Shown here piece by piece: positions 1,562 to 28,914 of a DNA stretch of 64,000 bases; position 1 is the stretch's first letter; each line of letters begins with the position of its first letter. The DNA is from Paludibacter sp. (GTDB lineage: Bacteria; Bacteroidota; Bacteroidia; Bacteroidales; Paludibacteraceae): the NCBI GenBank assembly GCA_028692715.1, contig JAQUWU010000028.1:1-64000 (forward strand). The letters run 5' to 3'. The translations under genes and the position numbers were made by a program. Below the pieces are notes generated by a model. The model made no database searches. It worked only from the letters and a program-made list of their open reading frames with translations, and was not told where the DNA came from.

Positions 1562-1613
1562 AGCGTTTTAAAGTGTTTTCTATGTTTAGAAAAAGAATCT
1601 ATCTCTTTGTAAT

Positions 1614-6368: not shown

Positions 6369-6403
6369 TTTATTGATTTTAGAGGAAGGAAAAAAAGAAA
6401 AAG

Positions 6404-6438
6404 ATAACGTCCGCAACAGTCAATATTACGGACGTTAT
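6404..6438 (-). terminator. Hairpin between the 526-residue protein gene and GH81
   Basis: A perfect 10-bp inverted repeat, ATAACGTCCG (6404-6413) against CGGACGTTAT (6429-6438), is followed on the minus strand by a pyrimidine-rich tract. It looks like a rho-independent terminator or a stabilising 3' hairpin inside operon A, which would lower expression of GH81 and the transporter relative to the upstream binding proteins. Confidence 0.65.
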
Positions 6439-6448
6439 ATTTGAAAGA

Positions 6449-8029: not shown

Positions 8030-8066
8030 AAGAAATTGTTTTTTATAGATTTATAATTAAAAGAGA

Positions 8067-8102
8067 ATAAGGTTCGTGGAGAAAGCTCGCCACGAACCTT
8101 AT
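8067..8102 (-). terminator. Strong intercistronic hairpin
   Basis: A 13-bp stem (ATAAGGTTCGTGG against CCACGAACCTTAT) with a 10-nt loop sits a few bases after the stop at 8106, and a T-rich stretch follows on the minus strand. It is a good intrinsic terminator or a partial terminator and mRNA stabiliser within operon A. Confidence 0.7.
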
Positions 8103-8105
8103 AGA

Positions 8106-10292: not shown

Positions 10293-10331
10293 GATAGTAA
10301 TTTTTAAATTGTTTATTAAAAATGGTTGATA

Positions 10332-12314: not shown

Positions 12315-12365
12315 TTTTTTTATTTAGATTGTGAATTATATTATTCTATATTTCTTTTGGCGAAA

Positions 12366-13283
12366 TTAATAAGTATGAAATTCTTCTTTATCAATTCCTT
12401 TTTGATATACTTTTATGTAATCAACATACATAATACCAGATCCTGATTTAAGAGCAGTAATTTCGTTTATATTATAAATTTCAGAGAAAGTTCCCCCTAC
12501 AGCTAAATTAAACAGGATAAAATAAGGTTTGTGAAAATACCGACCCGTGCAGTTTGGTTCATCTTTTGTATTTATTGGCATCACGAAATAAGGTTCGTTA
12601 TTTGGGAACTTATCAGTATCCAAATACATTTTAATTGAATCCACGTTCCATATTAATGTATATAAATGAAAATCATCCTGTAAACTATATTCATTTGTTT
12701 TGGCCATTCCTTTATTTGGATACGAACCTCCATTCCAACTTTCGCCCCAGTGACATGCTCCGTTAAAATACCTATCCTGTATATTTTTATCAATGCCTGT
12801 TTTATGACCCATTTCTACAATATCAATTTCGCCACATTTTGGCCATACATTTACGTTATTGTCGCTACCCAACAACCAAAATGCCGGCCATAAACCATTG
12901 GCAGTCTTTGGCATTTTTATTCGTGCTTCAACCTTTCCGTATTGAAACGTCATTTTATTTTGAGTAGTAATACGACCTGATGTTGCCGGTTTTGATTTAT
13001 AATTTGATTTCTTTGCTTTGATAATCATGCAAGACTCGCCACTTAGAGGTTCTTTTCCAACTGATATATTTTTTCGGCTATAATATTGCAGTTCTCTATT
13101 CCCACCACCATCGCCATCTACAACAACAGTCCACTTATTCTTTACATCCAATTTCTTTGAATCAAAATTATCCTGCCAGATTAATTTATAATTATCCAAG
13201 GAAGATTTTTGAATTTGACTAAAGAGATTTTGTGACAAAAACACTAAAGAAAAAAGGATTGTAATTGTTAATGATTTATTCAT
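12366..13283 (-). CDS. GH16 endo-beta-glucanase (laminarinase-like)
   Basis: This 305-residue protein has an ordinary signal peptide (MNKSL...NLFSQ) and a single GH16 jelly-roll domain. The active-site motif GEIDIVEMG lies at about residues 149-157, giving Glu about 150 as nucleophile and Glu about 155 as acid/base. The bulge form EIDIVE is that of laminarinases and lichenases. It is the first gene of operon A, behind the -7 box at 13381-13388. It is a clear paralogue of the enzyme at 16938-18152 but stops right after the catalytic domain (KGIDKEEFHTY) and has no T9SS sorting domain. It is therefore likely periplasmic, trimming imported oligosaccharides. Hydrolysis of internal beta-1,3(4)-glucosidic bonds follows from the family. 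Confidence 0.9.
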   Translation of the reverse strand: MNKSLTITILFSLVFLSQNLFSQIQKSSLDNYKLIWQDNFDSKKLDVKNKWTVVVDGDGGGNRELQYYSRKNISVGKEPLSGESCMIIKAKKSNYKSKPATSGRITTQNKMTFQYGKVEARIKMPKTANGLWPAFWLLGSDNNVNVWPKCGEIDIVEMGHKTGIDKNIQDRYFNGACHWGESWNGGSYPNKGMAKTNEYSLQDDFHLYTLIWNVDSIKMYLDTDKFPNNEPYFVMPINTKDEPNCTGRYFHKPYFILFNLAVGGTFSEIYNINEITALKSGSGIMYVDYIKVYQKGIDKEEFHTY

Positions 13284-13380
13284 ATTGAGAATAGTTAGAT
13301 ATCGTTGATAAGTATTTTTAAATTCTTAGAGCGAAAAATTATTGTTATGAATTTATCAGAGATTACATTTTCATACATTG

Positions 13381-13388
13381 CAAATATA
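13381..13388 (-). promoter_or_regulatory. Bacteroidota -7 box of operon A
   Basis: On the minus strand this reads TATATTTG, matching the TAnnTTTG consensus, about 93 bp upstream of the GH16 start. The identical octamer in the same surroundings precedes SusC at 25446-25453. No other promoter candidate for operon A was seen. Confidence 0.6.
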
Positions 13389-13512
13389 AATCTATTAAAA
13401 TCCAATAACTAAATATTAACCACACAAATATTCAAAAACAAGGAATTTACACTACACATTATTACAACATATAATTATTTATAGTACTGTATATGTGCGC
13501 TTTATAAAATTA

Positions 13513-13538
13513 TATGTTATGAAACATATTTCACAAGC
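13513..13538. promoter_or_regulatory. Palindromic operator candidate, site 1
   Basis: The palindrome TATGTT-ATGA-AACATA is followed by TTTCACAAGC. It is 23 of 26 identical to site 2 at 25578-25603, and both lie exactly 125 bp from an identical -7 box. It sits between the divergent GH16 operon and the propeller/LuxR regulator gene, whose start is about 70 bp away, so it may also serve autoregulation. It is the probable binding site of that regulator. Confidence 0.6.
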
Positions 13539-13608
13539 CATTTCATCTCTAAAATTTTCGCTATCATTGAATGATTTAATAGAAAATATTTCAAAAAAGT
13601 AAAAATCC

Positions 13609-16503
13609 ATGATTATGAAAAAGCTATTCTTATCTGTAATTTTCATATTTATCTACACAACTTCTTACTCAACTCAGCCAATGGTACGAAACTTTAGCAG
13701 AGATGATTATAATTCGGGGACTCAAAACTGGGGTATAGCACAAGATGAAGCCAATACCATGTTTTTTGCCAATAACTTTGGATTATTGGAATTTGATGGA
13801 AAAAACTGGACTACCTACCCAATAAATAATGGAACGAATGTTCGCTCAGTATTATATGGAAAAGATGGTCGATATTATGCTTCTTCCTTTAACGAATTCG
13901 GATATTACACCCGTCAAAATAACGGGGAACTTGTATATCAATCACTCAATGAAAAGCTGGGGAAAAAGATGATTAATTCAAATGGATTGTATTCTATTCA
14001 TCAGGGAATAAATAAGATTTATTTTCAATCAGAAAAAATGGTTTTAGAATATAATGCCGGGAAAGTGTTGAGTTATCCTTTTCCTGGGAAAATTAATGTC
14101 TCTGCTTTTGTACATAATGTATTATTTGTAACTAGTACACAGAGTGGAGCCTTTATGTTAACAGGGAATTTATTCATTCGAATATCCGGCTCTGAAATTT
14201 TACAAAACAAGAATATTTGTGCCATTTTACCATTCGGAAATAATAAAGTATTATTTGTAAGTAGTTTCGATGGCGTGTTTATATACGATGGAAATACAAT
14301 TCAACCCTATGTAACCGGAATTGATGAGTTTTTAAAATCTAATCAGGTTTTCTGTGCTACGACCAATGGCATTCAACTGGTATACGGAACTGTACAGCGG
14401 GGAGTTGCCATTCAAAATATTTCCGACAAGTCTGTAATTTATGTAAACACCTTCTCCGGTCTTCAGAACAATACGGTGCTTAGCGTAGCATTCGATAATA
14501 AGCAGAATCTTTGGCTGGGACTTGATAAGGGCATCGATTATATTTTATTGAACAGCCCAATACAGAATATATTCGGAACAAACAATTTATACGGTGCCGG
14601 TTATACATCAATTCTTAAAAATAACATTCTGTATTTTGGGACTAATCAGGGTCTTTATACCACTTCGTATCCTTTGCACAATGGTCCTTCACCAGTTCAA
14701 CTCAAACTTATGAATGGAATGGAAGGACAAGTTTGGAGCTTAGATGATATTGACAATACGCTTTTTTGTGGCACCGACCGTGGTGCATTTATAATATCAA
14801 ACCAAAAAGTTGAGAAAATAACAGAATTACAGGGTACATGGAAATTCAAACAATTAAGAATGCATCCTGATTTAATTTTAGGTTGTTCCTATCAGGGGCT
14901 TTTTATTTTAAAGAAGTTAAACAATAACTGGAAATTTTCACATTTTATTAAGGGTAAATTTTCTGAATCAAGCCCAATGTTTGAAGAATCTGAAGATGGT
15001 TCAATTTGGTTTAGTCACTGGCAGAAAGGATTATTCAGACTTCACTTAAACGCCAAAATGGACAGCATAATTAAAGTAGATTTGTACGATACATCTAAAG
15101 GTTTGCCTGGTTTCAAGAATAATACCATGTTTAGGATTGGGAATGAACTGATTTTTTCATCGGAAAGAGGATTTTATAAATATGATAAAAAAACAGACAG
15201 CATGGAAGTTTATGAAAAATGGAATCACCTTTTTTCAGCTCCACCGAGTTACATCCGCCTGCACGAAAGTGAAAATGGTGATGTATGGTGTATTTCCGGT
15301 CAGTTTGTAGGCTTAGCCAAAAAAGGAAAAAATAATTCATATAAGATGGACTCTTTAACCTACCATATTCTTCAACCAAAAATTGTCATCGGATTTGAAC
15401 ATTTTAATTTTATTGATAAAACAAATTTGATTTTAAATACTGAAGATGGATTTTGCTGGATAGATTTAAACAAAAAATTATTGACGAATAAAACTTTCAA
15501 CGTTTATCTTCATAAAGTGGTAATTACAAGCGAAAAAGGTTCATTAATTACTGTGAGAAATAATTCAACAGAAAATGAACAGGGGAATGAATTTCCTCAT
15601 CGTCAGAATTCATTACGATTTGAATTTATTGCCCCTGAATATAGAAACGAAGGGTTGGTTCGTTATAGCTATAAGCTTGAAAATTATGACAATTCATGGT
15701 CAGAGTTCAGCAAAACAAATATAAAAGAATATACTCAGTTACCAAAAGGAGATTATACTTTTAAAGTCAGAGCACATGATTTATTAGAATCAGAAGATGC
15801 CACCTACTCCTATACATTTACCATTTTACCTGCCTGGTACGAAAGCCGATTGGCATATATTATTTATTCAATTTTAATATTGATTTTAATTATTGTCTTA
15901 ATTATTTGGATTAACGACCAGACAAAAAAAGGAGCCCGTGATATGGAGAAACAAAAAGAAATAGAACTGAACGAACAAAAGAAGCATTTTGACGCAGAGA
16001 CATCGGAGAAAAAACGCGAAATTAAAGAGTTGAAAAATCAACAGTTGCAATATGAACTTCGCCATAAATCGCAGGAATTGGCTAGTTCCACTATGAATTT
16101 AATCCGAAAAAATGAAATGCTACAGGAAATAATGAATAATATTTCGAAAGTTGGTGATGATCTAAAATCGAATTCAGAGACAGATACGGTTTTAAAAAAA
16201 CTGAACAAGATGGAAAGAACCATTAAGCAAAATATAGGACACGATGATAATTGGAAACGGTTTGAAGAAAATTTTGATTTGGTGTATGAAAATTACCTGA
16301 AACGATTGAGCGAAGCGTTTCCGGCATTAAGTGTGAGCGACAAAAAACTTTGTGCGTATCTGAAAATGGATCTTACATCGAAAGATATTGCCCAGTTAAT
16401 GAATATGACCCTCAGAAGTGTGGAAATGAACCGTTATAGATTGAGAAAGAAATTGGAACTCGAGAGGGATACTAACCTTGGAGAATTTTTACAGCGATTC
16501 TAG
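13609..16503 (+). CDS. Membrane-spanning PUL regulator: propeller, Y_Y_Y, LuxR-type HTH
   Basis: This protein has 964 residues from 13609; the Met at 13615 (MKKLF) is an equally good start. It has a signal peptide or anchor (to about 22), then a long periplasmic beta-propeller of regulator-type repeats (about 30-640, with segments such as NLWLGLDKG). A Y_Y_Y domain follows (about 690-745, KGDYTFKVRAHD), then one transmembrane helix (about 750-768), a charged coiled coil (about 775-870) and a C-terminal LuxR/GerE-like helix-turn-helix (about 905-955, SKDIAQLMNMTLRSVEMNRYRLRKKL). It resembles an HTCS sensor but has no histidine kinase or receiver, so it would be a one-component sensor linking periplasmic glucan to transcription. 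It lies between the two laminarin operons and probably activates both. Confidence 0.85.
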   Translation: MIMKKLFLSVIFIFIYTTSYSTQPMVRNFSRDDYNSGTQNWGIAQDEANTMFFANNFGLLEFDGKNWTTYPINNGTNVRSVLYGKDGRYYASSFNEFGYYTRQNNGELVYQSLNEKLGKKMINSNGLYSIHQGINKIYFQSEKMVLEYNAGKVLSYPFPGKINVSAFVHNVLFVTSTQSGAFMLTGNLFIRISGSEILQNKNICAILPFGNNKVLFVSSFDGVFIYDGNTIQPYVTGIDEFLKSNQVFCATTNGIQLVYGTVQRGVAIQNISDKSVIYVNTFSGLQNNTVLSVAFDNKQNLWLGLDKGIDYILLNSPIQNIFGTNNLYGAGYTSILKNNILYFGTNQGLYTTSYPLHNGPSPVQLKLMNGMEGQVWSLDDIDNTLFCGTDRGAFIISNQKVEKITELQGTWKFKQLRMHPDLILGCSYQGLFILKKLNNNWKFSHFIKGKFSESSPMFEESEDGSIWFSHWQKGLFRLHLNAKMDSIIKVDLYDTSKGLPGFKNNTMFRIGNELIFSSERGFYKYDKKTDSMEVYEKWNHLFSAPPSYIRLHESENGDVWCISGQFVGLAKKGKNNSYKMDSLTYHILQPKIVIGFEHFNFIDKTNLILNTEDGFCWIDLNKKLLTNKTFNVYLHKVVITSEKGSLITVRNNSTENEQGNEFPHRQNSLRFEFIAPEYRNEGLVRYSYKLENYDNSWSEFSKTNIKEYTQLPKGDYTFKVRAHDLLESEDATYSYTFTILPAWYESRLAYIIYSILILILIIVLIIWINDQTKKGARDMEKQKEIELNEQKKHFDAETSEKKREIKELKNQQLQYELRHKSQELASSTMNLIRKNEMLQEIMNNISKVGDDLKSNSETDTVLKKLNKMERTIKQNIGHDDNWKRFEENFDLVYENYLKRLSEAFPALSVSDKKLCAYLKMDLTSKDIAQLMNMTLRSVEMNRYRLRKKLELERDTNLGEFLQRF

Positions 16504-16510
16504 AAAGCAA

Positions 16511-16548
16511 AAAAAACGATTTATGAAAAATTCATAAATCGTTTTTTT
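16511..16548 (+). terminator. Rho-independent terminator of the regulator gene
   Basis: A 17-bp A/T-flanked stem (16511-16527 against 16531-16548, core CGATTTATGAA) with a 3-nt loop and a run of seven T starts 8 bp after the stop at 16503. Confidence 0.85.
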
Positions 16549-16572
16549 ATACGCATTTCATTGAAGATATGT

Positions 16573-16662
16573 TTAAGGTGCTAATAAAATCAGAATAACA
16601 AATGGTACAATAATAGCTGCAAGAAAAACTACATCTTTCAATTCCAATTTTCTCTTTTTCAT
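16573..16662 (-). CDS. Possible 29-residue single-helix membrane peptide
   Basis: This small open frame begins MKKRKLELKD and continues as a hydrophobic helix of about 18 residues ending in LLAP. The charged N-terminus followed by one membrane-length segment is typical of genuine small membrane proteins, and the sequence is less A/T-biased than random spacer would suggest. It has no recognised homologue and no clear ribosome binding site. It lies alone in the 434-bp spacer between the regulator terminator and the GH16 gene at 16938. Apart from this frame and the terminator I see nothing else in the spacer. Confidence 0.35.
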   Translation of the reverse strand: MKKRKLELKDVVFLAAIIVPFVILILLAP

Positions 16663-16937
16663 AAAGTATTTATTTTTATATGCACAATTTTTAAAGGTTG
16701 AAAAGTATTCTGTACAATTATACATATAAAGAACGTTCAAAATATAATTAAAGTATATCAGTTGAAAATTATTTCCTATTAAAACTGCTTATTCATTCCT
16801 CTTGACAGATTTGGCCGTCAAAACAAACCGATTTATCAATCTTATTTTCAATTGTTTAATTACAAAACAATTATCATGTGCCATAATAAAAAATATTAGT
16901 AATTTATTTCAAATATTTAGTTAATGCATCTAAATCT

Positions 16938-18152
16938 CTATTTTTTCACAATTTTATGAGTTTCAATAACACCTTTACTATTTGTAATTTTTAATAAATA
17001 GTTGCCAGAAGATAAATTTTCGGTATTTATTTGTTTCGAATCCACAACTCTTAACAATTCTGTCCCTGATAAGGATAAAACACTAATACATGATGGAGAA
17101 TCATCTCCAACAACAGTAATATTATTCACAACAGGGTTAGGATAAATTTCGTATTGACGACTTGCTTTTAATACATTAATCGCATTAGGAGTTATTGCCG
17201 GACCAGTGTACTCTTCATCAGAAGTTCCTTTTTGATAAACCTTTACATAATCAACATACATTTTTGCTTCGTAATTGTTAGCCTCATTTAGAGCAGTAAT
17301 ACTATTTATATTCCAAATTTGTGTGAAGTTACCTCCAATAGCTAAATTGAAAATTACAAAGAATTCTTTATGGAAATAATGCGCAGCATTCCCAGCCACA
17401 TCATCTCCATCAATTGCCATTGTTACTATGTTCACTTTGAGAGGATCATCATCTGTTCCAAAATAGGTTTTCAATGAAGTATCATCCCAAATCAATGTAA
17501 ACAGATAAAAATCATCTTGAATACCTGTAGTATGAGTGTAATCTTTACCCCAGTTTGGGTAAGAGCCACCGTTCCAGCTTTCGCCCCAATGAAACCACGA
17601 ATTAAAGTATTTTTCTTGTGTACCATTACTAATTCCTTTTGAGTTGCCCATTTCCAAAATATCAATTTCACCACATTTAGGCCAGCCCACTGAAGAATAA
17701 TCCTGTCCCATTGCCCAAAATGCTGGCCATAAACCATTAGCCGTATGAGGTAATTTAATTCGAGCCACAATCTTTCCGTGTTTAAACGACATTTTATTGC
17801 TTGTTGTCAAACGACCTGAAGTACAGGTTTTTCCTGAATAACTTTCTTTTTTTGCAGTAATTATCAAGCAATTTTCTCCGCTTACAGGTTCTGTTCCAAC
17901 AGAGATATTCTCACTTCGATAATATTGTAATTCGCTGTTTCCACCACCATTTCCGTTTACTTCAGGTGTCCAGTTAACTGAATTTAAAGTTGTTCCATCG
18001 AACAAATCCTGCCAAACAAGGCTGTAACCATCTGCATCAACTATAACCTGAGCTGTCTCTTCAACAGGAGGGTTTACTTGTGAAGTACAACTGGCATTGA
18101 AAATCACTATAAATACTGCCAGCGAAATTGTTTTAATAAAAATGTTATTCAT
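16938..18152 (-). CDS. GH16 endo-beta-glucanase with T9SS sorting domain
   Basis: This protein has 404 residues. The N-terminus ends in a lipobox-like FNASC (Cys about 22). The GH16 domain covers about 40-300, with GEIDILEMG at about 159-167 (Glu about 160 and 165 catalytic). A T9SS type A sorting domain covers about 330-404 (IYPNPVVNN). It is a close paralogue of the GH16 at 12366-13283, sharing long segments such as TANGLWPAFW and HWGESWNGGSYPN. A lipoprotein signal together with a T9SS tail is unusual; the Cys may simply lie near an ordinary cleavage site. It is the last gene of the operon B block but is separated from the previous gene by a probable terminator, and no own promoter was found. 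It likely cleaves beta-1,3-glucan at the cell surface. Confidence 0.88.
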   Translation of the reverse strand: MNNIFIKTISLAVFIVIFNASCTSQVNPPVEETAQVIVDADGYSLVWQDLFDGTTLNSVNWTPEVNGNGGGNSELQYYRSENISVGTEPVSGENCLIITAKKESYSGKTCTSGRLTTSNKMSFKHGKIVARIKLPHTANGLWPAFWAMGQDYSSVGWPKCGEIDILEMGNSKGISNGTQEKYFNSWFHWGESWNGGSYPNWGKDYTHTTGIQDDFYLFTLIWDDTSLKTYFGTDDDPLKVNIVTMAIDGDDVAGNAAHYFHKEFFVIFNLAIGGNFTQIWNINSITALNEANNYEAKMYVDYVKVYQKGTSDEEYTGPAITPNAINVLKASRQYEIYPNPVVNNITVVGDDSPSCISVLSLSGTELLRVVDSKQINTENLSSGNYLLKITNSKGVIETHKIVKK

Positions 18153-18164
18153 TCTTTGTATTGT

Positions 18165-18302
18165 TTATTTAGTTATTTTAATCCAGTTTAAGGTAGTTCC
18201 GCCATACAAATTTTTTATTCTCAATGTATGATTCTTTTTACTTGCGGGTAAATTAATGATTTCTGTTATCTAGCTATTTTCAGCATCCGTTTTCAGCAAG
18301 TC
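18165..18302 (-). pseudogene. Remnant of a CBM6-like domain C-terminus
   Basis: In the spacer between two GH16 genes the minus strand encodes a short in-frame stretch: INLPASKKNHTLRIKNL, then YGGTTLNWIKITK, ending in TAA at 18165-18167. This is the typical closing strand pattern of CBM6-type domains; compare the CBM6 of GH81 (IPLTAGNHILKIAF). Upstream the frame is broken by a TAG at 18270-18272, and there is no start. It is probably the tail of a lost glucanase or binding protein. Confidence 0.45.
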
Positions 18303-18331
18303 AACAAATCATATTCTATTTTTAAACGCAA

Positions 18332-18384
18332 AAGTTCAATCACTGAAAAGCCTTTTTTTGAAATCTCAACAAGTGATTGAACTT
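18332..18384 (-). terminator. Probable terminator of operon B
   Basis: A perfect 13-bp inverted repeat (AAGTTCAATCACT at 18332-18344, AGTGATTGAACTT at 18372-18384) lies about 35 bp after the GH16 lipoprotein stop. On the minus strand it is followed by a short T run. The loop is long (27 nt), which lowers certainty. Confidence 0.55.
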
Positions 18385-18418
18385 ATAACACAACAACCTT
18401 AAAAAAGATATATATACT

Positions 18419-19489
18419 TTATTTTCGTTGATAGACTCTAACGTAGTCCACTTTCATTATAACAGGAACATCAAATATTGAATCATCTACAGTGCCTCCC
18501 ATAGTGCCACCTATAGCTAGATTTAAAATAAAATAGAAATCTTTGTTGAATGGCCAATCTGTAAGCGTAGAGCCCACGTGTTTTTGCCACGCCGTTGTAG
18601 ATTTCACACCGTCAATATAGAAACTAATATTGTCATCGCCATCGCTATAAGCTTTTTCCCACTCAATAGCATAAGTATGATAATTACCTTCGACTCCATC
18701 AATATACTGACGGTTAGACCAATTATTACCTCTCGAACCATTCTTCTCACTAGTATGGGTTGCATGCGAAATCATAGTTGGATCAGAACCGATATGCTCC
18801 ATAATATCAATTTCACCACAATAAGGCCATCCAGAAGTCGCACCTAACATCCAGAAAGCAGGCCAAGTACCTTTTCCTGCAGGCAAACTGATACGTGCTT
18901 CCATCTTTCCATAAGCAAATACAGCTTTTGCTTTAGTAGTTATACGAGCAGAAGTGTATTTATTAGTATATTCTTTATAGGTTTCTTTTTTTGCTTCAAT
19001 AATCAAGCTCCCATCTTCCAAGCGGACATTGTCAGTACGGTCAGTGTAATACTGTTTCTCACTATTTCCCCAACCATAACCCCCTATTTCATAATTCCAT
19101 TTAGTTAAATCGAGGGTGTCACCATCAAACTCTTCAGACCAAACAAGTTCGTAGGGTAAATCGTCAGCAGTAACTGTAAAAACACAAGTTGAATATAACA
19201 AACTATCAACAGTAACTTTAATAGTAGCACTTCCTCTTGCAAGACCTTTAACAAGACCTTCTGTTACAATTGCTACTTTCTCGTTAGAAGATGTCCAAAC
19301 CACAGTACCTTGAGCTTTATCGGGCAAAAGAGTGGCAATCAGAGCAACAGAATCACCAACAGCCAATACATCTTCTGATTTATTTAGCGTTACACTTTGG
19401 GCACTAACAATAGGCTCATCTGTTTTACAAGCTGTAAACAATACTAAAACAAATAACACTAGTGGAAGTATATGGGGAGTTAATTTCAT
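18419..19489 (-). CDS. GH16 endo-beta-glucanase lipoprotein with Ig-like domain
   Basis: This 356-residue surface or periplasmic lipoprotein has the lipobox LFTAC (Cys about 21) followed by KTDEP. A BIG_2-type Ig-like domain covers about 30-108 (VALIATLLPDKAQGTVVWTS), and a GH16 domain about 110-356 carries GEIDIMEHIG (Glu about 224 and 229). The EIDIMEHIG form is the classical laminarinase active site. It is the last gene of operon B after SusC, SusD and the 311-residue lipoprotein. The KTDEP sequence after the Cys and the Ig-like domain resemble that neighbouring lipoprotein, so the two probably work together on the outer membrane. The predicted reaction is endo-hydrolysis of beta-1,3-glucan before import through SusCD. 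Confidence 0.92.
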   Translation of the reverse strand: MKLTPHILPLVLFVLVLFTACKTDEPIVSAQSVTLNKSEDVLAVGDSVALIATLLPDKAQGTVVWTSSNEKVAIVTEGLVKGLARGSATIKVTVDSLLYSTCVFTVTADDLPYELVWSEEFDGDTLDLTKWNYEIGGYGWGNSEKQYYTDRTDNVRLEDGSLIIEAKKETYKEYTNKYTSARITTKAKAVFAYGKMEARISLPAGKGTWPAFWMLGATSGWPYCGEIDIMEHIGSDPTMISHATHTSEKNGSRGNNWSNRQYIDGVEGNYHTYAIEWEKAYSDGDDNISFYIDGVKSTTAWQKHVGSTLTDWPFNKDFYFILNLAIGGTMGGTVDDSIFDVPVIMKVDYVRVYQRK

Positions 19490-19579
19490 ATTATAATACT
19501 TTAAAAAAATGGTTGAGATTAGAATCTTATAAAAGCAAATTGACAGCGTTTGAAAATGCTATTCAGTTAGCTATTGGTA

Positions 19580-19609
19580 GTGCAGTGGATACATTCAAAC
19601 CCACTGCAC
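19580..19609 (-). other. Intercistronic hairpin in operon B
   Basis: A 9-bp stem (GTGCAGTGG against CCACTGCAC) with a 12-nt loop lies after the stop of the 311-residue lipoprotein gene. No U-tract follows, so it is more likely an RNA-processing or stability element than a full terminator. Confidence 0.5.
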
Positions 19610-19629
19610 ATTATTTTATTTGATAGCAA

Positions 19630-20565
19630 TTATTTTTTGTAAATAAATACAGCATCAAGATCAAGTGTAGTACCAGCAACACCACCACTTAAAAATGCAA
19701 ATAAATTATTAGCTGCATAATTACTGTAAGTTAATCCCATAGTTTTAAGAGTTGTCATAGGAATTTCAATTTCGTGCCATTCGCCATCGCGAGTAAAATC
19801 AGCAAGTGCAGGAAAAGTAACACCATTATCAACAAAACCAGAGGCACCGATTGTAAATTTAATATCAGTTTGACCGCCTAAAATTATTGCATGTGAAGCA
19901 TTATCTCTACTTTTAATACCAATGTGTAAATAATAACCTTCAGGATTATCAGTAATTGCTTTTAAACTTGCAAGAGCATCTGTATTACTAGGAATATCAA
20001 CGCTAATGCCTGCACCTGACCAGCCAACAGAAGCAACTGTTAAACTAACCCAACCTTCAACTTCTTTGTAGAAATTAGGACCAGTAGCAGTCCCTGCAGT
20101 ATATGTGTCATCCCATACATATAAAAATCTTGTTGCATCATCTACACGAAAATCGGCTACAATTTTACTGCCTATTTTTTCAGCAGTAACAGCATCCAAA
20201 ATAATAGGATAATACTCTGAACCAGTTAAAGATGGAGAGAAATCGGTACGTTCTGTTACAGTAATCATACAAGTAGCAGTAAATGAACCTGCAGTAGCTG
20301 TAATATTAGTTGAACCCATATTCACACCAAGAACGCGTCCACCAGTAACAGTAGCAATAGTAGGATCTGCACTTGCCCAAGTAATAGTTTCGGTTACACC
20401 TGCAGGTTGGATAGTAGCCACAAGAAGAGTAGTATCCCCTACACCTAATGACCATGTGGTTTCATCTAAAGTAATACCCGTCATTGTGACTTCATCGGTT
20501 TTACATGAGCTGAACAAAACAAGAGCCATGCTCAACGATAAGAATAAGAATTTTTTGATTTTCAT
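19630..20565 (-). CDS. Putative surface glycan-binding lipoprotein (SGBP)
   Basis: This 311-residue lipoprotein has the lipobox LFSSC (Cys about 21) followed by KTDEV. A BIG_2-type Ig-like domain covers about 28-105, and a module of about 200 residues (about 110-311) contains FLYVWDDT, GWSGAGIS, DGEWHEIEIPMTTL and a closing D-A-V-F-I-Y strand. That module matches the unit repeated three times in the protein encoded at 10332-12314. It lies directly downstream of SusD, where PULs usually encode the extra surface glycan-binding protein (SusE/SusF position). No enzyme motif is seen. It is inferred to bind beta-1,3-glucan at the cell surface. Confidence 0.78.
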   Translation of the reverse strand: MKIKKFLFLSLSMALVLFSSCKTDEVTMTGITLDETTWSLGVGDTTLLVATIQPAGVTETITWASADPTIATVTGGRVLGVNMGSTNITATAGSFTATCMITVTERTDFSPSLTGSEYYPIILDAVTAEKIGSKIVADFRVDDATRFLYVWDDTYTAGTATGPNFYKEVEGWVSLTVASVGWSGAGISVDIPSNTDALASLKAITDNPEGYYLHIGIKSRDNASHAIILGGQTDIKFTIGASGFVDNGVTFPALADFTRDGEWHEIEIPMTTLKTMGLTYSNYAANNLFAFLSGGVAGTTLDLDAVFIYKK

Positions 20566-20587
20566 GATTTTAAAATTTAATTGTTTG

Positions 20588-20621
<34 letters not shown>

Positions 20622-20628
20622 GTTTTAT

Positions 20629-22185
20629 TTAATATAATGGATTTTGACCCATTGGATTTAATTCTATCTCTTGACTTGGGATAGGGAATAGTTCATGTTG
20701 CCCGGCAACAAAAAGAGACATTTCTGCTTGAGCTTCAGCAGTTTCTGTAGCCTTATATGCATCCATAGTTTCTTTTGCAACACCCCAACGACAGATATCA
20801 AACCAACGGTGTCCTTCCATGGCTAGTTCAACACGGCGTTCGTGACGAATAGCTTTTCGTAAATCATCTTGATTATCAGCATAAGTTCCGTAAGGAAATT
20901 CAGGTAATATTGCTTGACCTCCTCTTGCTCTTAAACGAACTTCTTCCAATGCTTTTTTCGCACCAACCAAATCATTAGTTTCCACACTAGCTTCAGCATA
21001 CATCAATAATACATCGGCATAGCGAATCACTTTATTATTAATTGCACCACGAGTTGCGTGAGCTAATTTTGGAAATGTTCCATCATCATTCATAAGTGCA
21101 TATTTGCGATTTAGATAACGACAGCCCAGATATATTTCCTGCGATGGAGTTTCAATTTGAGCATCGGTAGGATTAAGAATAGTTGCATCTCTTCGCGGAT
21201 CATTTGTTTCATATTCATCATATAAATTTTGAGTGGGTTTATTAAATCCCCATCCACCACCAAGCAATGTAGAACGCGACCTTGTCAAAATAACTGTGAA
21301 CGTACCACGAGTGAAACCCTCACCATCGCCATAGTCACTTGTTGGATCTTCCATATACTGAATTTCAAATACAGATTCAGGACCATTTTCACCTGCCAAG
21401 GTGAAATTATCGGCATAATTGGAAACTAAAGAATATTGATTTGATAACATGATAGAATCGCCCCAACGCTTAGCATCTGGATAATTATGATTATATAGAT
21501 TTGCTTTCAACAACATAGCTTGTGCTGCACCTTTAGTAGCACGTCCTAAATCCGTTGAAGCATAATCACTCTTTAGCCAAAGTGTACTGTTTGCAGATTC
21601 CAAATCAGAAATGATTTGTGTGTAAATGGCATCTTTAGTAGCTCGTGGTTGCTTCCAGTCTGTAGTTGAAGTGATAGGCGCCGTAGTTAATGGTGTACCA
21701 CCAAAAATGCGCACTAATCTGAAATAGTACATAGCTCTCAAAAATTTCAATTCGCCAATGAGTCTATTCTGCACACTAAGAGTCATAGTAGAGTCAAGAG
21801 TCATTAATGGAATTTGCTCCAAGGCCAAATTACATCTTCCAATTCCAATGTATTGCGTACGATAAAAATCAAGCAAGAAAGAGTTATTAGAATTTGTTTT
21901 GAAATTTTCAAAGTCGTATACATCAGCCATATCACCAATTGATTGGCCTCCTTTTAGCGCATCATCAGAAGCTACATCGCCAATAAACCATTCAGGAAAA
22001 TAAGTATCATTGTATTCCCACATTAATGGAACATATGCTCCATTAGTTACTTCAATAGCAGTTTGACCTACTGAGAAATAATCATCGACAAGTGTTACGC
22101 CGGGAGTTGGTTCAAGTAACCAATCGTTACAAGAAGTAAGAAATATTGTTCCGGTAGCGAATAATATATAAATTAGTTTTTTCAT
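20629..22185 (-). CDS. SusD-like outer-membrane glycan-binding lipoprotein
   Basis: This 518-residue protein has a lipoprotein signal peptide (IFLTSC, Cys about 19) and begins the mature chain with DWLLEPTPG, as SusD proteins do. It has a TPR-rich alpha-helical SusD/RagB body and the conserved C-terminal region ERRVELAMEGHRWFDICRWG followed by LFPIPSQEIELNP. It lies 69 bp downstream of its SusC partner. SusD caps the SusC barrel and delivers oligosaccharides. Given the GH16 genes in the same operon, the substrate is probably laminarin-like beta-glucan. A GC-rich palindromic repeat sits 15 bp upstream of its start. Confidence 0.95.
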   Translation of the reverse strand: MKKLIYILFATGTIFLTSCNDWLLEPTPGVTLVDDYFSVGQTAIEVTNGAYVPLMWEYNDTYFPEWFIGDVASDDALKGGQSIGDMADVYDFENFKTNSNNSFLLDFYRTQYIGIGRCNLALEQIPLMTLDSTMTLSVQNRLIGELKFLRAMYYFRLVRIFGGTPLTTAPITSTTDWKQPRATKDAIYTQIISDLESANSTLWLKSDYASTDLGRATKGAAQAMLLKANLYNHNYPDAKRWGDSIMLSNQYSLVSNYADNFTLAGENGPESVFEIQYMEDPTSDYGDGEGFTRGTFTVILTRSRSTLLGGGWGFNKPTQNLYDEYETNDPRRDATILNPTDAQIETPSQEIYLGCRYLNRKYALMNDDGTFPKLAHATRGAINNKVIRYADVLLMYAEASVETNDLVGAKKALEEVRLRARGGQAILPEFPYGTYADNQDDLRKAIRHERRVELAMEGHRWFDICRWGVAKETMDAYKATETAEAQAEMSLFVAGQHELFPIPSQEIELNPMGQNPLY

Positions 22186-22199
22186 TGGATTTTATATTT

Positions 22200-22223
22200 A
22201 CCCCTAGCCCCTAAAGGGGAAAA
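22200..22223. repeat. GC-rich palindromic repeat, copy 1 (solo)
   Basis: The sequence ACCCCTAGCCCCTAAAGGGG followed by A's matches the element found as inverted pairs at 30076-30171 and 49879-49998. It occupies the SusC-SusD spacer. Its CCCC-TAAA-GGGG core can form a small hairpin just before the SusD ribosome-binding region. Confidence 0.8.
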
Positions 22224-22254
22224 GAGAAGTTATTACATTAAATTTTTATATCGA

Positions 22255-25200
22255 TTAGAAATCAAGATTCACACCCAACATAATTGTTCTAGATTGTGGA
22301 TAATTACCATAATCTACACTACTACCTACTTCTGGATCATATCCTGTATACTGAGTAAAAGTCAACAAATTACTTCCTGTAAAATAAATACGAGCTCTAT
22401 TGATACTCACTTTTTTAGTAATTTCACTAGGAAGAGTATAACCAATCTGTAAGTTTTTTAACCTTAAATATGATCCACTTTCCACAAAACGACTTGAAGT
22501 TGCCATATTAAGCGATGTTCCATAAGGATTTGGAATTGTACCATCTACATTCGAAGTCGTCCACACATCACGCATGCTTGTACTTAGTGTAGCCTCTTCT
22601 CCTTTACCTTCAGTTCGCATGCGAACAGCATTATAAATTTCATTTCCGGCAACTCCTTGAAAGAATAGCTGCACATCAAATCCTTTATAATCTGCTCCTA
22701 AATTTAATCCATAAGAAATCCAAGGGAATGCATTACCAAGATCTGTTTTATCGTTATCATCAATTATGCCATCACCACTTATATCTTTGAATTTAGCATC
22801 ACCAGCATGATAAGGAATTTTATCAGCGGCGTAACCAGACAAATAATCAGTTGCTTCAGCATCTGTTTTATAAATACCTTCATATTGGTATCCCCATAGA
22901 GTAAATAAAGCATATCCTTCATCAGATTTTACTTTATCACCGTAAATCACATCTCCACCATTAAGGGTTGTCAATTCATTTTTGATAAATGACACATTTC
23001 CACTTACAGTATAATTTACTTTTCCTATTTTATTTTGATGATCTAATGATAACTCTATACCCTTGTTGTTGATATTACCTACATTTGAAATAGGGTCATA
23101 ACGGTTACCAACTTGAGCAGGTGCTTTTACATAAAGTAATGCATCCAAGGTATTCCGACTAAATAAATCAAGATTACCATTTAATTTTCCACCAAACAAA
23201 CCAAAATCAATACCTCCATTAAGTTGTTCTGCAGTTTCCCAGGTTCCACCTGCATTTGGTATTGTAAGCATAGTAGATCCATTTGCCAATGTTTGAGTCT
23301 CACCTAACACGTAACTTACAAAAGTTGGTCCAGCCGAAAACATTACTGAATTAAATGCATCTGTAGGCACATTTGCATTACCAATTCGTCCCCATCCTAA
23401 TCGAAGTTTTATGAAATCAAGATTTTCAATCCTTGGCATCCAGCTTTCTTCGGTAAGTCTCCACGCCAGTGCTGTAGAAGGAAAATATCCCCACGGCTTA
23501 GACGAGAATCTACTAGAAGCATCTCCACGGAAATTTAAGGTAACCATATATTTACTACCAAAAGAATAATGCACACGACCCAATAAAGAGAATAACCTAC
23601 TACGATCTACATCATCTCCAGCATAAGATTTATCTTCAGTTGTCGACTTTAAATACCAGTTACTTTCTACAGGATTTAATATTGACGCACCCGATCCTCC
23701 CAATGTATTATAATTATACTCCTCAGTTGTTTGTCCAACCATAGCAGAAAAAGAGTGTTTACCAATCGACTTATTAAAACTCAAGGTATTTTCATATATC
23801 ATTGTATTATAACGTGTAATACTGCTTTGAAAATAGTTTTTAGCAGATTGATCGTATGATGAATACTCATAAGCTTCTTTAAATAATTGACTGCGAACAT
23901 AAGAGTGATCAAAATTAACGGAAGAGCGCCATATAAAATTCTTTACTGGAGTAAGCTCAACATACACATCACCCACCCAACGTTCTGTTCTACTTAATGG
24001 ATGTGACATTTCAACCATAGAATAAGGATTAGTCACATTCTTGAAATTTGAAGAGGCTGCAATTTGGCCGCTTAAATCCACACCATTTATATTTACTGAA
24101 CCATCGGAATAATGTGTCGGATCCCATGGCGCCATAGCCAAAGCAGCTGAAAGAACAGAAGCTCCTGGACTTGAACTATTATTCATTGCATTTCGACCTG
24201 AAGAAGTATTGAATGAAAGGTTCTGTCCAATTTTCAACCATTTATTCATTTCGTGTGCACTGTTCAAACGGAAAGTCAGTTTTTCGTAATTAGAACCAAT
24301 GACTGTTCCATCTTGAGAGAAATAACCAGCCGATACTGTATATTGATCTTTTTTTGTTCCTCCATCAAAGGAGATATAATAATTCTGTATAAGTGCATTT
24401 TCGTTGAATACTTCATCTTGCCAATCAGTTTCCACCGAAGAATAATCGAAACCTGTAGGATTTGAATCTGATAAAACAGTTGGATAATAAGGAGATCTAC
24501 CTAAACGATATAGAGATAACCATTTATTGAAACCATTATTTTTATAGTAATTCTTTTCAGAAGCTAAATTGTTTAAAGAAACAATTGTTTGGGCCATCTC
24601 ATCGCGTTGCATCAGGTCTAGTTTATTCCAACGATTCTGAACACCTGTATAAGCATTAAATGAAATATTTGTTTTGCCTTCTTTTCCTTTTTTAGTTGTT
24701 ACCAGAATAACTCCATTGGCACCACGTGAACCATAAATAGCAGTAGCAGAAGCATCTTTCAATACTTCAGTAGCTTCAATATCGTTTGGATTTAAGAAGG
24801 ATATATTTGTCGTAATCATTCCATCTACCACATAAATTGGATCGCTACCACCCATAACTGAGCCAATACCACGAATACGAATTGAAGCAGCTGCACCAGG
24901 TTGACCACTATTAGCGTTTACAGTCACGCCTGCTGCGCGACCTTGTAAAGCTTGATCAAGACCTGAAGCAGGAGTTTTTTGTAAAGCATCGGATTTAATA
25001 GAAGTTACAGATCCAGTTAAATCGCTTTTTTTCATTGTACCATAACCGATTGCAACAACCTCATCTAAGAGTTTAGTGTCAGATTCTAGCACAACATTAA
25101 TAACAGTATTAGCACTAATAGTTTTTATCACTTCTTTATAACCTATAAAAGAATATGATAACGAATTACCTTTTGGCACTTTAATACTATACTTTCCATC

Positions 25201-25368
25201 TAAATCAGTAACAACACCAACACCTGTTAGCCCTTTTACTATAATATTAACTCCAGGTAAAGGATATCCATCCTCTTTGGCTGTTACAACTCCCGAGACT
25301 TGCCATGCTTGTGCCCAAATTAATTGAGCAACAATTACCATTGATAAGAGTAAAATTGTTTTTTTCAT
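22255..25368 (-). CDS. SusC-like TonB-dependent outer-membrane transporter
   Basis: This protein has 1037 residues from the Met at 25368; an in-frame Met six codons upstream gives a poorer signal peptide. It has a signal peptide (to LIWAQ), a carboxypeptidase-regulatory-like domain (about 22-95, GVVTAKEDGYPLPGVNI), the SusC signature DEVVAIGYGTMKKSDLTGSV, a plug domain (about 105-215, including YVVDGMITT and ATAIYGSRGANGVILVTTKKG) and a large beta-barrel ending in the typical final strand (MLGVNLDF). It imports oligosaccharides with SusD in a TonB-dependent way. It is the first gene of operon B. Its upstream region aligns with that of operon A, indicating shared control. Confidence 0.96.
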   Translation of the reverse strand: MKKTILLLSMVIVAQLIWAQAWQVSGVVTAKEDGYPLPGVNIIVKGLTGVGVVTDLDGKYSIKVPKGNSLSYSFIGYKEVIKTISANTVINVVLESDTKLLDEVVAIGYGTMKKSDLTGSVTSIKSDALQKTPASGLDQALQGRAAGVTVNANSGQPGAAASIRIRGIGSVMGGSDPIYVVDGMITTNISFLNPNDIEATEVLKDASATAIYGSRGANGVILVTTKKGKEGKTNISFNAYTGVQNRWNKLDLMQRDEMAQTIVSLNNLASEKNYYKNNGFNKWLSLYRLGRSPYYPTVLSDSNPTGFDYSSVETDWQDEVFNENALIQNYYISFDGGTKKDQYTVSAGYFSQDGTVIGSNYEKLTFRLNSAHEMNKWLKIGQNLSFNTSSGRNAMNNSSSPGASVLSAALAMAPWDPTHYSDGSVNINGVDLSGQIAASSNFKNVTNPYSMVEMSHPLSRTERWVGDVYVELTPVKNFIWRSSVNFDHSYVRSQLFKEAYEYSSYDQSAKNYFQSSITRYNTMIYENTLSFNKSIGKHSFSAMVGQTTEEYNYNTLGGSGASILNPVESNWYLKSTTEDKSYAGDDVDRSRLFSLLGRVHYSFGSKYMVTLNFRGDASSRFSSKPWGYFPSTALAWRLTEESWMPRIENLDFIKLRLGWGRIGNANVPTDAFNSVMFSAGPTFVSYVLGETQTLANGSTMLTIPNAGGTWETAEQLNGGIDFGLFGGKLNGNLDLFSRNTLDALLYVKAPAQVGNRYDPISNVGNINNKGIELSLDHQNKIGKVNYTVSGNVSFIKNELTTLNGGDVIYGDKVKSDEGYALFTLWGYQYEGIYKTDAEATDYLSGYAADKIPYHAGDAKFKDISGDGIIDDNDKTDLGNAFPWISYGLNLGADYKGFDVQLFFQGVAGNEIYNAVRMRTEGKGEEATLSTSMRDVWTTSNVDGTIPNPYGTSLNMATSSRFVESGSYLRLKNLQIGYTLPSEITKKVSINRARIYFTGSNLLTFTQYTGYDPEVGSSVDYGNYPQSRTIMLGVNLDF

Positions 25369-25445
25369 GTTTTTTAAATAATTCATAATATTAAATATGT
25401 GAAGGATTTTCTAAATCAATAAAAATTCGTTGATTTTGTATATTG

Positions 25446-25453
25446 CAAATATA
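25446..25453 (-). promoter_or_regulatory. Bacteroidota -7 box of operon B (SusC)
   Basis: TATATTTG on the minus strand matches TAnnTTTG, about 77 bp upstream of the SusC start. It is identical to the box at 13381-13388 and at the same 125-bp distance from the palindromic site. Confidence 0.65.
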
Positions 25454-25577
25454 GATTGATATTGCTCAAATTAAAAACTTTCAACCTCACATTATTTCAA
25501 TTTGAACTCAAAGTAAGTACACAGAATTACAACAATAATAATTATATTTAATTGATATACTGCATGTTACAAATTTC

Positions 25578-25603
25578 TATGTTTTGTAACATATTTCACG
25601 AGC
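25578..25603. promoter_or_regulatory. Palindromic operator candidate, site 2
   Basis: TATGTT-TTGT-AACATA followed by TTTCACGAGC. It is a near copy of site 1 at 13513-13538. Between the site and the -7 box the two regions align without gaps and share a further identical nonamer, ATTACAACA (25526 and 13461). It is the probable target of the propeller/LuxR regulator. Confidence 0.62.
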
Positions 25604-26424
25604 TAAATCACAAATTAAATTAACAGCAATATTATAGATTTTATGTAATTATATCAAATCAGTCATTGACAATAAGAACCATTATTTTTTTAATCAACTT
25701 AAATATTTTTGTTTCAGTTTTATTATATACAAATAGAATATATTAACCTGATTTAAATCCAGCCAAAATAATTTGAATTTTATATTTACGCACCAAGTTA
25801 TTATAAATCATTTTGACTAAAATATCTACACTACGAAAAATACTAATTTCATTTGACTTGCTTAATACAAGCCTAAAAGTATTGTTATATGGATTTGGAT
25901 ATACAACTGACAAATTAGTTGTATTTCATGTGATTCAGTTGCACTTTCTACAAACACACGAATATTTTCAAATGAGGAGAGACTTAGATTATTTGTTTCT
26001 GTCGATTGACTTAGGTACAATTTATACCGATTGCAGAAATAATATAGTTCAATTTCGACAATGTCTCATTGTTCTATTTATTTCTATGCATCGACATTAA
26101 CTACAGTAGACTTATAAAATAGCTTTGGACTATTTTATAAGTACAAGTGATATTATTTGTTTGTACAAATTGAATTGCCCTATATATATTAAACGGTTAC
26201 TAATGTTAACAATAATGTGTGTCAAATAGTTCGCAAACAACTGAATAACAACTATAAAAATTTTAAATATACAATTTAAGATTACAAATCAGCACACAGA
26301 TTAAACGGAACAACTGGTATTCCTGTGAAAACACAGTTAGATGTTACTTTTGTTATCTTAAACAATATAGAAATTTTCAAGAAACTCAGCAGAAACAATA
26401 AACTTGTTGCTATAAAATAGCAAG
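25604..26424. other. Long non-coding spacer
   Basis: No credible gene was found here. The spacer is very A/T rich. Its only clear structure is the hairpin at 26110-26142. A 95-codon open frame on the plus strand (25813-26100) has no recognisable domain or codon signature. The region adjoins the truncated GH3 gene and may hold sequence decayed beyond recognition. Confidence 0.5.
26110..26142. other. Strong AT-rich hairpin
   Basis: A perfect 13-bp inverted repeat, ACTTATAAAATAG against CTATTTTATAAGT, with a 7-nt loop. It lies in a gene-free stretch with no U-tract on either strand. It may be a relic terminator or a protein-binding site. Confidence 0.5.
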
Positions 26425-26865
26425 TTAGATTAATTTCGGATAATCATTTTTCAGCCAATACTTTAACTTCGTTAATCGTTCCAATTCAAACTTCACACTT
26501 TCTCCACTTTGGCTGTCTTTCGATATCCAGACTTCGAATTCGCCGAGTTCAGCGTAATACGTATTATCGTTGTGCCAAAAGCCAAGTTGATCGGGACTAA
26601 TTTCAAATTGCAGCTTTTTAGTTTCGCCTACTTTAAGGTCGATTTTCTGAAAAGCTTTTAGTTCGCGTACCGGACGAGCCAAAGTTGCTACCAAATCCCG
26701 CACATAAAGTTGTACTGCTTCTTTAGCATCGTATCTACCTGTATTTATTATGCTGCATTCTGCAGTTATTTTCCCGTTTTTATTGAGTTGGGTTGATGAT
26801 AAATTTACTTTTGAGTATTCAAAACGGCTGTATGATAAACCGAAACCGAATGGGAACAATGGTTT
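26425..26865 (-). pseudogene. C-terminal fragment of a GH3 beta-glucosidase
   Basis: The minus strand encodes only the last 147 or so residues of a GH3 enzyme: KPLFPFGFGLSYSRFEY, which is the start of the Fn3-like C-terminal domain, then that domain (AVQLYVRD, RPVRELKAFQKI) to a normal stop. Everything upstream (the catalytic domain, about 600 residues, and the start) is absent. At about 26866 the sequence changes abruptly into the opposite-strand regulator fragment. The conserved KPL[FY]PFGFGLSY motif gives a firm assignment. It is presumably inactive. The lost gene probably belonged to the laminarin PUL. Confidence 0.85.
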
Positions 26866-28301: not shown

Positions 28302-28345
28302 TTGAAAACAAATAATGTCGTATTTTCATGAAAAAATTTAAGAAT

Positions 28346-28865: not shown

Positions 28866-28914
28866 TATACCTAAAAATGTAAATATTCAAAATACAATTA
28901 AAAATAAATCTATT

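What the first reader, a model, noticed from the sequence alone, without database searches (positions are those of the whole stretch)
13381..25603. Two PUL operons share a homologous promoter module with identical 125-bp geometry
Upstream of GH16 (operon A) and SusC (operon B) an identical -7 box (TATATTTG) lies exactly 125 bp from a palindrome, TATGTT-N4-AACATA followed by TTTCACRAGC (23 of 26 bases identical). The intervening DNA aligns without gaps and includes an identical ATTACAACA nonamer (13461 and 25526). Conserved islands at fixed spacing suggest a multi-site operator for the propeller/LuxR regulator encoded between the operons. The 12-kb separation makes it a clear regulon signature.
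Basis: partly seen in the sequence, partly recalled or inferred. Interest (0 to 1): 0.75.

Follow-up and report, generated by a model that had tools for sequence, protein, structure and literature searches.

The report
Two-activator promoter module for glucan genes
Two neighbouring sugar-degradation operons share a roughly 170-base control region that recurs at almost the same spacing in dozens of promoters of related bacteria and appears to combine a site for a global hunger regulator with paired sites for a local sugar-sensing regulator.

Summary
A sequence model of the ~170-bp module has exactly two matches in the window's genome: 13379-13549 and 25444-25608. Of 30 upstream regions chosen only by regulator homology, 28 show the palindrome and the -7 box 123-126 bp apart (shuffles: mean 0.13, max 2; a distant regulator clade: 0 of 28 rows). 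The model finds 57 strong matches (43 of them training rows) in 22 of 48 genomes of the genus. All 22 encode this regulator type; none of the 22 genomes without it has a strong match.

The palindrome's arms match the published BT4338/Cur (Crp-family carbon-limitation activator) consensus, and the strict motif occurs in 14 of 22 genomes lacking the regulator. The propeller/LuxR-type regulator more likely binds two direct-repeat boxes, 32 bp apart in 28 of 47 modules, just upstream of the -7 box. I read it as a composite promoter: global Cur site plus local membrane-anchored regulator at fixed geometry, MalT/CRP-like in logic. Binding was not tested; two further conserved islands are unexplained. 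New variant of a known kind.

The parts
13381..13388 (-). -7 promoter box TATATTTG of operon A (GH16 side)
   Evidence: TAnnTTTG at the same gap in 28 of 30 homologous regions
13416..13433 (-). proximal direct-repeat box (box 4) GAATATTTGTGTGGTTAA
   Evidence: PWM score 18.3
13448..13465 (-). distal direct-repeat box (box 3) GTAATAATGTGTAGTGTA, 32 bp from box 4
   Evidence: score 13.6 against shuffle mean -0.8
13513..13528 (.). palindrome TATGTT-N4-AACATA, Cur/BT4338-type site
   Evidence: consensus from PMC3878776
13529..13552 (-). conserved flank GATGAAAT...GTGAAA (consensus GTTGAAAT...TTGAAA), function unknown
13609..16503 (+). RegA, 964 aa: propeller, Y_Y_Y, LuxR-like HTH; N-terminal signal and membrane helix read from the sequence
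12366..13283 (-). GH16, first gene of operon A
128..12314 (-). rest of operon A: ExopC-type, fn3-type, BACON, GH81C and MFS genes (operon inferred from order and strand)
25446..25453 (-). -7 promoter box TATATTTG of operon B (SusC side)
25481..25498 (-). proximal direct-repeat box (box 4) GAAATAATGTGAGGTTGA
   Evidence: score 14.2
25513..25530 (-). distal direct-repeat box (box 3) GTAATTCTGTGTACTTAC, 32 bp from box 4; weak
   Evidence: score 2.4 against shuffle mean -0.4
25578..25593 (.). palindrome TATGTT-N4-AACATA, Cur/BT4338-type site
25594..25617 (-). conserved flank GTGATTT...GTGAAA
22255..25386 (-). SusC-type transporter, first gene of operon B
16938..22185 (-). rest of operon B: SusD, Big_2 protein, GH16 with Big_2, SKN1/KRE6-type (GH16-like) protein
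26793..28301 (+). RegB remnant: second regulator paralogue whose alignment to RegA starts only at residue 475

Best explanation
Each copy is a composite, activator-dependent promoter. Reading upstream from the -7 box: (1) two direct-repeat boxes, the proximal one with its core starting 42 or 43 bp before the -7 box and the distal one 32 bp further, which are the most likely binding sites of the neighbouring membrane-anchored propeller/Y_Y_Y/LuxR-type regulator (RegA in the window); (2) a palindrome whose near edge lies 124-126 bp from the -7 box, which is a site for a Crp-family regulator of the BT4338/Cur kind (best candidate gene in this genome: C79:67283-67981). When beta-glucan oligosaccharides reach the periplasm RegA would sense them and load onto the two boxes; when carbon is short Cur would bind upstream; both together would recruit RNA polymerase to a promoter without an evident -33 element. 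RegA would drive operon A (divergent from it) and, 12 kb away, operon B, whose nearby regulator RegB is now a remnant. Shown: sequence, geometry, conservation, co-occurrence with the regulator, occurrence of the palindrome apart from the boxes. Inferred: which protein binds which box, the ligand, the direction of the effect, synergy.
For: Geometry: 28 of 30 regions selected by regulator homology; shuffles mean 0.13, max 2; distant clade 0 of 28 rows; in front of GH16, SusC, MFS, BACON, fn3-type and GH3 genes. Spacer DNA between the two regulator clades is near the random level (identity 0.36 and 0.35 against 0.33 and 0.31 expected), box 4 is at 0.64 against 0.37; the values for palindrome arms (0.91) and -7 box (1.00) are inflated or fixed by how the rows were picked. 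Repeat: box 4 has its best same-strand partner exactly 32 bp upstream in 28 of 47 modules and 33 bp in 3 more. Co-occurrence: 57 strong model matches (43 training rows, 14 new) in 22 of 48 genomes; 22 of 26 with the regulator, 0 of 22 without (Fisher 5.7e-10, relatedness ignored). Palindrome = Cur type: consensus and fusA2 site in papers; 90 strict sites in 36 of 48 genomes, 0 in the reversed control; loci of the C79 Crp gene carry such a palindrome at <=2 mismatches beside the start in 13 of 30 (shuffles mean 0.17, max 2). Separability: L275 has a 32-bp direct repeat (19 of 20 bases, 0 of 300 shuffles) and no palindrome. DNA-only hits outside the genus lie beside a regulator homologue in 10 of the 13 best loci fetched, L362-L374, and in 0 of the next 6, L375-L380. 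The HTH is highly conserved over both clades and LuxR-like in fold.
Against: No binding or expression data. A 32/33-bp partner is absent in 16 of 47 modules, chiefly clade-B (GH3-type) ones. In the window, operon B's box 3 is weak (2.4). Two modules of G008 (L088, L185) have almost no box 4 (0.3, 0.9). L275 was not found by the model and its repeat could be a recent tandem duplication; L291, the other palindrome-free promoter, shows no significant self-repeat (287 of 300 shuffles as good), though the model matches it (2.9e-9). A box-4-plus-(-7) pattern is only twice as frequent as its control (31 against 16). Of five out-of-genus promoters tested, only L384 repeats at 32 bp (0 of 300); L382 repeats at 22 bp (2 of 300); three are not significant. 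No significant 10-11.5-bp periodicity (p 0.11). The genome's own candidate Crp gene has only a 3-mismatch palindrome. The two window palindromes lack the nTAn centre. In B. thetaiotaomicron BT4338 was not seen bound upstream of polysaccharide utilization genes (PMC6989115).
Confidence: 0.68

Rival explanations
1. The whole module, palindrome included, is the operator of the propeller/LuxR regulator, which binds a palindromic dimer site plus accessory sites.
For: Palindrome and boxes keep a fixed distance; every genome with a strong module match has the regulator; NarL/LuxR-type HTH proteins often bind inverted repeats (recalled).
Against: The arms match the BT4338 consensus and the strict motif is found in 14 of 22 genomes without the regulator; L275 has the box repeat without a palindrome.
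Confidence: 0.16
2. The two promoters look alike only because of a recent duplication; spacing is inherited, not selected.
For: Constant offset of 12065 and 60% identity between the two copies.
Against: The same spacing holds between regulator clades whose spacer DNA is near the random level, and in front of six kinds of gene.
Confidence: 0.04
3. The palindrome marks the regulator gene's own promoter (autorepression), TTTCA being part of its -7 element, and keeps its distance from the PUL promoter only incidentally.
For: It lies 77-143 bp before the regulator start in the regions with <=1 mismatch, and some rows have TTG about 20 bp before CATATTTC (my reading).
Against: Of 17 modules found by DNA pattern, none has RegA/RegB homology on its locus; in 14 of these more than 3 kb on that side was seen, in 3 (L178, L182, L185) under 500 bp. 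They keep the palindrome, by selection, and 9 of 17 the exact TGAAA flank (29 of 47 overall).
Confidence: 0.1

Closest known systems
BT4338/Cur (Crp-family) sites of Bacteroides
   Same: Palindrome wwwTATGTTnTAnAACATAwww (PMC3878776: passages and one section seen). The tested fusA2 site, CCTTATGTTACATAACATTGTT (PMC6989115: passages seen), has an nCAn centre, as do the window copies on the minus strand (TCAT, ACAA).
   Different: Here it is built at a fixed distance into PUL promoters; in B. thetaiotaomicron BT4338 was not seen bound upstream of polysaccharide utilization genes, though PMC11501099 (passages) mentions sites within PUL22.
SusR-like and HTCS regulator sites predicted in Bacteroides (PMC3878776, passages)
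   Same: Direct repeats on one face of the helix for membrane-spanning glycan regulators.
   Different: Published spacings are 67 or 77 bp (SusR-like) and 21 bp on average (HTCS); here mostly 32 bp, and the regulator has a LuxR-like HTH and no kinase or receiver domain.
E. coli mal promoters with MalT and CRP (recalled; one search gave listings only)
   Same: LuxR-type local activator at direct repeats near the promoter plus a Crp site further up.
   Different: The regulator is membrane-anchored with a periplasmic propeller; sites, spacing and organisms are unrelated.
BT4663-type HTCS sensor (4a2l/4a2m)
   Same: Periplasmic propeller plus Y_Y_Y fold (best TM 0.69 by target length).
   Different: No HisKA, HATPase, receiver or AraC domain found in RegA.

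Membership tests
BT4338/Cur binding site | match to wwwTATGTTnTAnAACATAwww | tested here: inconclusive
   arms exact in both window copies, centre ATGA and TTGT instead of nTAn; over 47 modules the centre is T in 40 and A in 39; the tested fusA2 site has centre ACAT
BT4338/Cur binding site | global distribution beyond one regulon | tested here: met
   90 strict sites in 36 of 48 genomes, 0 reversed-control; the own genome has one strict site, C14:8713; neighbours were looked at in 16 fetched loci only and not run against Pfam
BT4338/Cur binding site | site upstream of the Crp-family gene itself | tested here: inconclusive
   13 of 30 loci at <=2 mismatches; own gene only 3 mismatches
BT4338/Cur binding site | orthologue of BT4338 in this genome | not tested
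   four Crp-family genes; C79 resembles 2gau_A; no BT4338 sequence was at hand
BT4338/Cur binding site | bound by the protein in the cell | not testable with these tools
   needs ChIP or EMSA
SusR-like regulon site | direct repeats 67 or 77 bp apart | tested here: not met
   best partner 32 bp in 28 and 33 bp in 3 of 47 modules
Hybrid two-component system | kinase, receiver and AraC HTH in one protein | tested here: not met
   RegA has only Y_Y_Y and Reg_prop above cut-off
LuxR/GerE-type HTH | GerE domain or fold | tested here: inconclusive
   GerE 14.6 bits, below the 23.5 cut-off; the domain model matches LuxR/NarL HTHs, prob 1.00 but E 0.02
MalT/CRP-type composite promoter | cooperative action of both activators | not testable with these tools
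   analogy recalled, no call

The most novel reading that the evidence does not exclude
An enhanceosome-like promoter of about 170 bp in the Bacteroidota: a membrane-tethered LuxR-type glycan sensor on 32-bp direct repeats, a Cur dimer fixed about 12 helical turns upstream of the -7 box, and two further conserved sites (CTGATAATCAG and the GTTGAAAT...TTGAAA doublet) that must assemble as one rigid complex, so that carbon-limitation and substrate signals are read together directly at PUL promoters.
Probability: 0.3. Interest if true: 0.75.

Novelty: new variant of a known kind. Interest (0 to 1): 0.6.

Why it matters
How the global regulator Cur (BT4338) controls polysaccharide utilization loci is open: it is needed for full expression of the arabinan locus in B. 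thetaiotaomicron (PMC5061871, passages), yet was not seen bound upstream of polysaccharide utilization genes there (PMC6989115, passages). Here a Cur-type site is part of the PUL promoter itself, at a fixed distance, in dozens of promoters. That makes direct synergy testable with short DNA fragments. The direct-repeat boxes are also candidate target sites for a propeller/LuxR-type regulator family. The listings of my searches showed no paper on such a motif; of those papers I opened only PMC13188888 and PMC10766802 (passages), and the library is open-access only.

Tried and rejected
The palindrome alone as the signal: not enriched in the window at <=2 mismatches. The palindrome as the local regulator's own site: dropped. 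The palindrome as part of the regulator's promoter: weakened by modules without a regulator beside them. A 10-11.5-bp periodicity of conservation: p 0.11. Clade-C regulators (about 31% identity, own copy C36): another promoter, no module. A structured RNA: no Rfam match in 12000-29000. Direct repeats outside the genus: clear only in L384, partly in L382; the PWM pair test there was centred on locus midpoints and can miss the match, so I lean on it little. The full-module pattern in 393 genomes of the order gave 15 places outside the own genome against 15 in the control, i.e. chance, with one true case, G244. My early label 'spurious' for palindromes without boxes (L183, L184, L187-L198) was revised: several may be plain Cur sites. 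Paper searches gave mostly unrelated listings.

Rows dropped: L071, L030 and window copy B from the 30-region test (distant paralogue, distant homologue, no own regulator); L176 left out of the 46-row model alignment although among the 47 modules. The 28 clade-C rows hold one locus twice (L006, L213).
Full report
What was checked. The two promoter regions were read and aligned. The promoters face minus-strand genes. Operon A starts with a GH16 gene (start codon at 13283) and contains GH81C and MFS genes. Operon B starts with SusC (start codon at 25386), followed by SusD and GH16-type genes. The make-up suggests beta-1,3-glucan use (inference). Between them lies RegA, 13609-16503, divergent from operon A.

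The regulator. RegA has a propeller, a Y_Y_Y domain, long C-terminal helices and an HTH; a signal peptide and a membrane segment at about 747-770 are my reading of the sequence. The full model has mean pLDDT 77.4, with residues about 786-833 below 50. Foldseek matches the sensor part to BT4663 and related Bacteroides sensors. The HTH region, folded apart (mean pLDDT 88.1), has LuxR/NarL-type domains as its best matches, none reaching E 0.001. Pfam's GerE score is below cut-off. The HTH is highly conserved across the two clades of relatives (25 sequences).

Footprint in relatives. The closest named relatives are metagenome-assembled Paludibacter genomes, and one of the genus handles has a contig of the same length as one of them (136978 bases), so I call the genus Paludibacter (inference). 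Of 48 genomes of the genus, 36 have a RegA match at E 1e-100; 26 of these have one of 43% identity or more (clade A/B, some as fragments), the others only matches of about 28-33% (clade C and the like). I took upstream regions for 30 A/B regulators, the window's RegA and two relatives outside the genus (L026, L027) included, chosen by protein homology alone. In 28 the best palindrome and a TAnnTTTG box on the other strand are 123-126 bases apart. The exceptions are L082 (contig end) and L091 (regulator gene without its N-terminal part). Shuffles gave a mean of 0.13 and a maximum of 2; clade-C regions gave 0 of 28 rows, 27 distinct loci. The divergent gene varies: GH16, SusC, MFS, BACON, fn3-type, GH3.

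Anatomy. In 47 modules (28 from the regulator set, the window's copy B, and 18 from DNA patterns, of which 17 were picked in part by the gap itself), the gap is 124 (20), 125 (20), 126 (6) or 121 (1). Consensus from the promoter outward: CTATATTTGCA; TTGAATTTTTGTGTGGTAAAA (box 4); TGTnGTAnTATTGTGTAGT (box 3); CTGATAATCAG; the palindrome TATGTTATACAACATA; TTGAAA and a second GTTGAAAT (46 rows). Palindrome to box 4 is 82 or 83 bases in 44 of 47; box 4 to the -7 box is 42 or 43 in 46 of 47. A weight matrix from box 4 finds its best upstream partner exactly 32 bp away on the same strand in 28 of 47 and 33 bp in 3 more. Clade-B modules are the main exceptions. There is no evident -33 TTTG at the usual place.

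Two separable sites. PMC3878776 (passages and one section) predicts wwwTATGTTnTAnAACATAwww for BT4338, a Crp-family regulator later called Cur. PMC6989115 (passages) shows that removing a site of this kind, CCTTATGTTACATAACATTGTT, from the fusA2 promoter abolishes BT4338 binding and activation. The arms of the window palindromes match exactly; their centres are not nTAn but, on the minus strand, nCAn like the fusA2 site. The strict motif occurs 90 times in 36 of 48 genomes with no reversed-control hit, including 14 of the 22 genomes without an A/B regulator. Among the listed places only three (G015:C71, G024:C636, G031:C7:131768) coincide with modules; the list was cut short. The reverse case is thinner: L275 has a 32-bp direct repeat (19 of 20 bases, 0 of 300 shuffles) and a -7 box but no palindrome; L291 has box 4 and no palindrome, but no significant repeat.

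Candidate Cur. The genome has four Crp-family genes. The C79 gene has matches at E 1e-30 in 46 of 80 genomes of the order; the 30 best loci, the own one included, were examined. Within -70 to +16 of the start, 13 of 30 have the palindrome at 2 or fewer mismatches and 19 of 30 at 3 or fewer (shuffle means 0.17 and 1.2, maxima 2 and 5). This fits the autoregulation proposed for BT4338. The own copy has only a 3-mismatch match. I had no BT4338 sequence to compare.

Regulon and range. A sequence-only model built from 46 modules finds 74 matches at E 0.01 in the genus: 57 at E 4.9e-7 or better and 17 at 7e-5 or worse. Of the 57, 43 were training rows and 14 are new. The 57 fall in 22 genomes, all with an A/B regulator. 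Seven further genomes have only weak matches. The four regulator-bearing genomes without a strong match are G009 and G035 (regulator lacks its N-terminal part) and G030 and G045 (the regulator match reaches a contig end). Fisher's exact test gives 5.7e-10, which ignores relatedness. In 247 genomes of the order, 49 have a match at E 0.01; strong ones outside the genus are in G077, G244 and G068, each divergent from a 46-58% regulator. Of the 13 best out-of-genus places for which loci were given (L362-L374), 10 lie beside a regulator homologue; of the next 6 (L375-L380), none does. Most of the weaker ones beside a regulator match only the boxes-to-promoter part of the model. A clear 32-bp self-repeat was found in one of five out-of-genus promoters tested, L384.

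Modules away from the regulator. Of 17 modules found by DNA pattern, none has RegA/RegB homology on its locus; 14 of them show more than 3 kb on that side, L178, L182 and L185 under 500 bp. L182 (G044:C737) may simply be the missing half of L082 (G044:C223), both cut by contig ends. They stand before SusC, BACON-, ExopC-, fn3- and GH3-type genes and others, as operon B does in the window.

Window history. Beyond the operator of operon B lies a regulator remnant (RegB, 26793-28301) whose alignment to RegA starts at residue 475 and which abuts a GH3 C-terminal fragment (26425-26859). In relatives, eight of the nine clade-B type regions with a recognisable neighbour are divergent from GH3 or lie at such a border (L063, L064, L065, L081, L090, L067, L089 are GH3; L082 ends at a contig edge), and the fragment is 54-66% identical to the GH3 proteins of those seven loci. 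The simplest reading is a deletion that fused the two. The operator at 25578 therefore belongs to SusC, as in relatives where a clade-A regulator is divergent from SusC (L076, L077, L078, L087). RegA may now serve both operons.

Verdict. The assignment of the palindrome to the local regulator is probably wrong. The likely picture is a composite of a Cur-type site and direct-repeat sites of the local regulator. No binding has been tested, and two conserved islands have no explanation.

Noticed in passing
window 26425-28301: GH3 C-terminal fragment fused to a regulator paralogue without its N-terminal half and last residues; looks like the scar of a deletion in a GH3-regulator unit.
   Followed up: partly
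consensus of A3, between palindrome and box 3: Conserved CTGATAATCAG, itself a palindrome, with no known binder.
   Followed up: no
window 13529-13552 and 25594-25617: GTTGAAAT...TTGAAA doublet beyond the Cur-type palindrome; exact TGAAA next to the palindrome in 29 of 47 modules.
   Followed up: partly
upstream of clade-C regulators, e.g. L213: A different conserved promoter, ATTTTGTCATGTCAAAGAACTTTCCGTAATTTG-like, before many of the ~31% identical regulators.
   Followed up: no
window 59623-62801: A plug-domain frame (237 aa) is followed by an overlapping 823-aa frame without a Pfam hit; probably one SusC-type gene split into two frames.
   Followed up: no
window 33259-59527: A second glycan locus with its own HTCS (52317-56441) and GH3, GH95, GH43, GH39 and GH31 genes.
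   Followed up: no
L257-L264, L267, L272: A Cur-type palindrome conserved across genomes next to a ~145-aa secreted-protein ORF and, in most, a ~320-aa membrane-protein-like ORF.
   Followed up: partly
L275 (G008:C214): A near-perfect 32-bp tandem repeat of the box region before a -7 box, without palindrome.
   Followed up: partly
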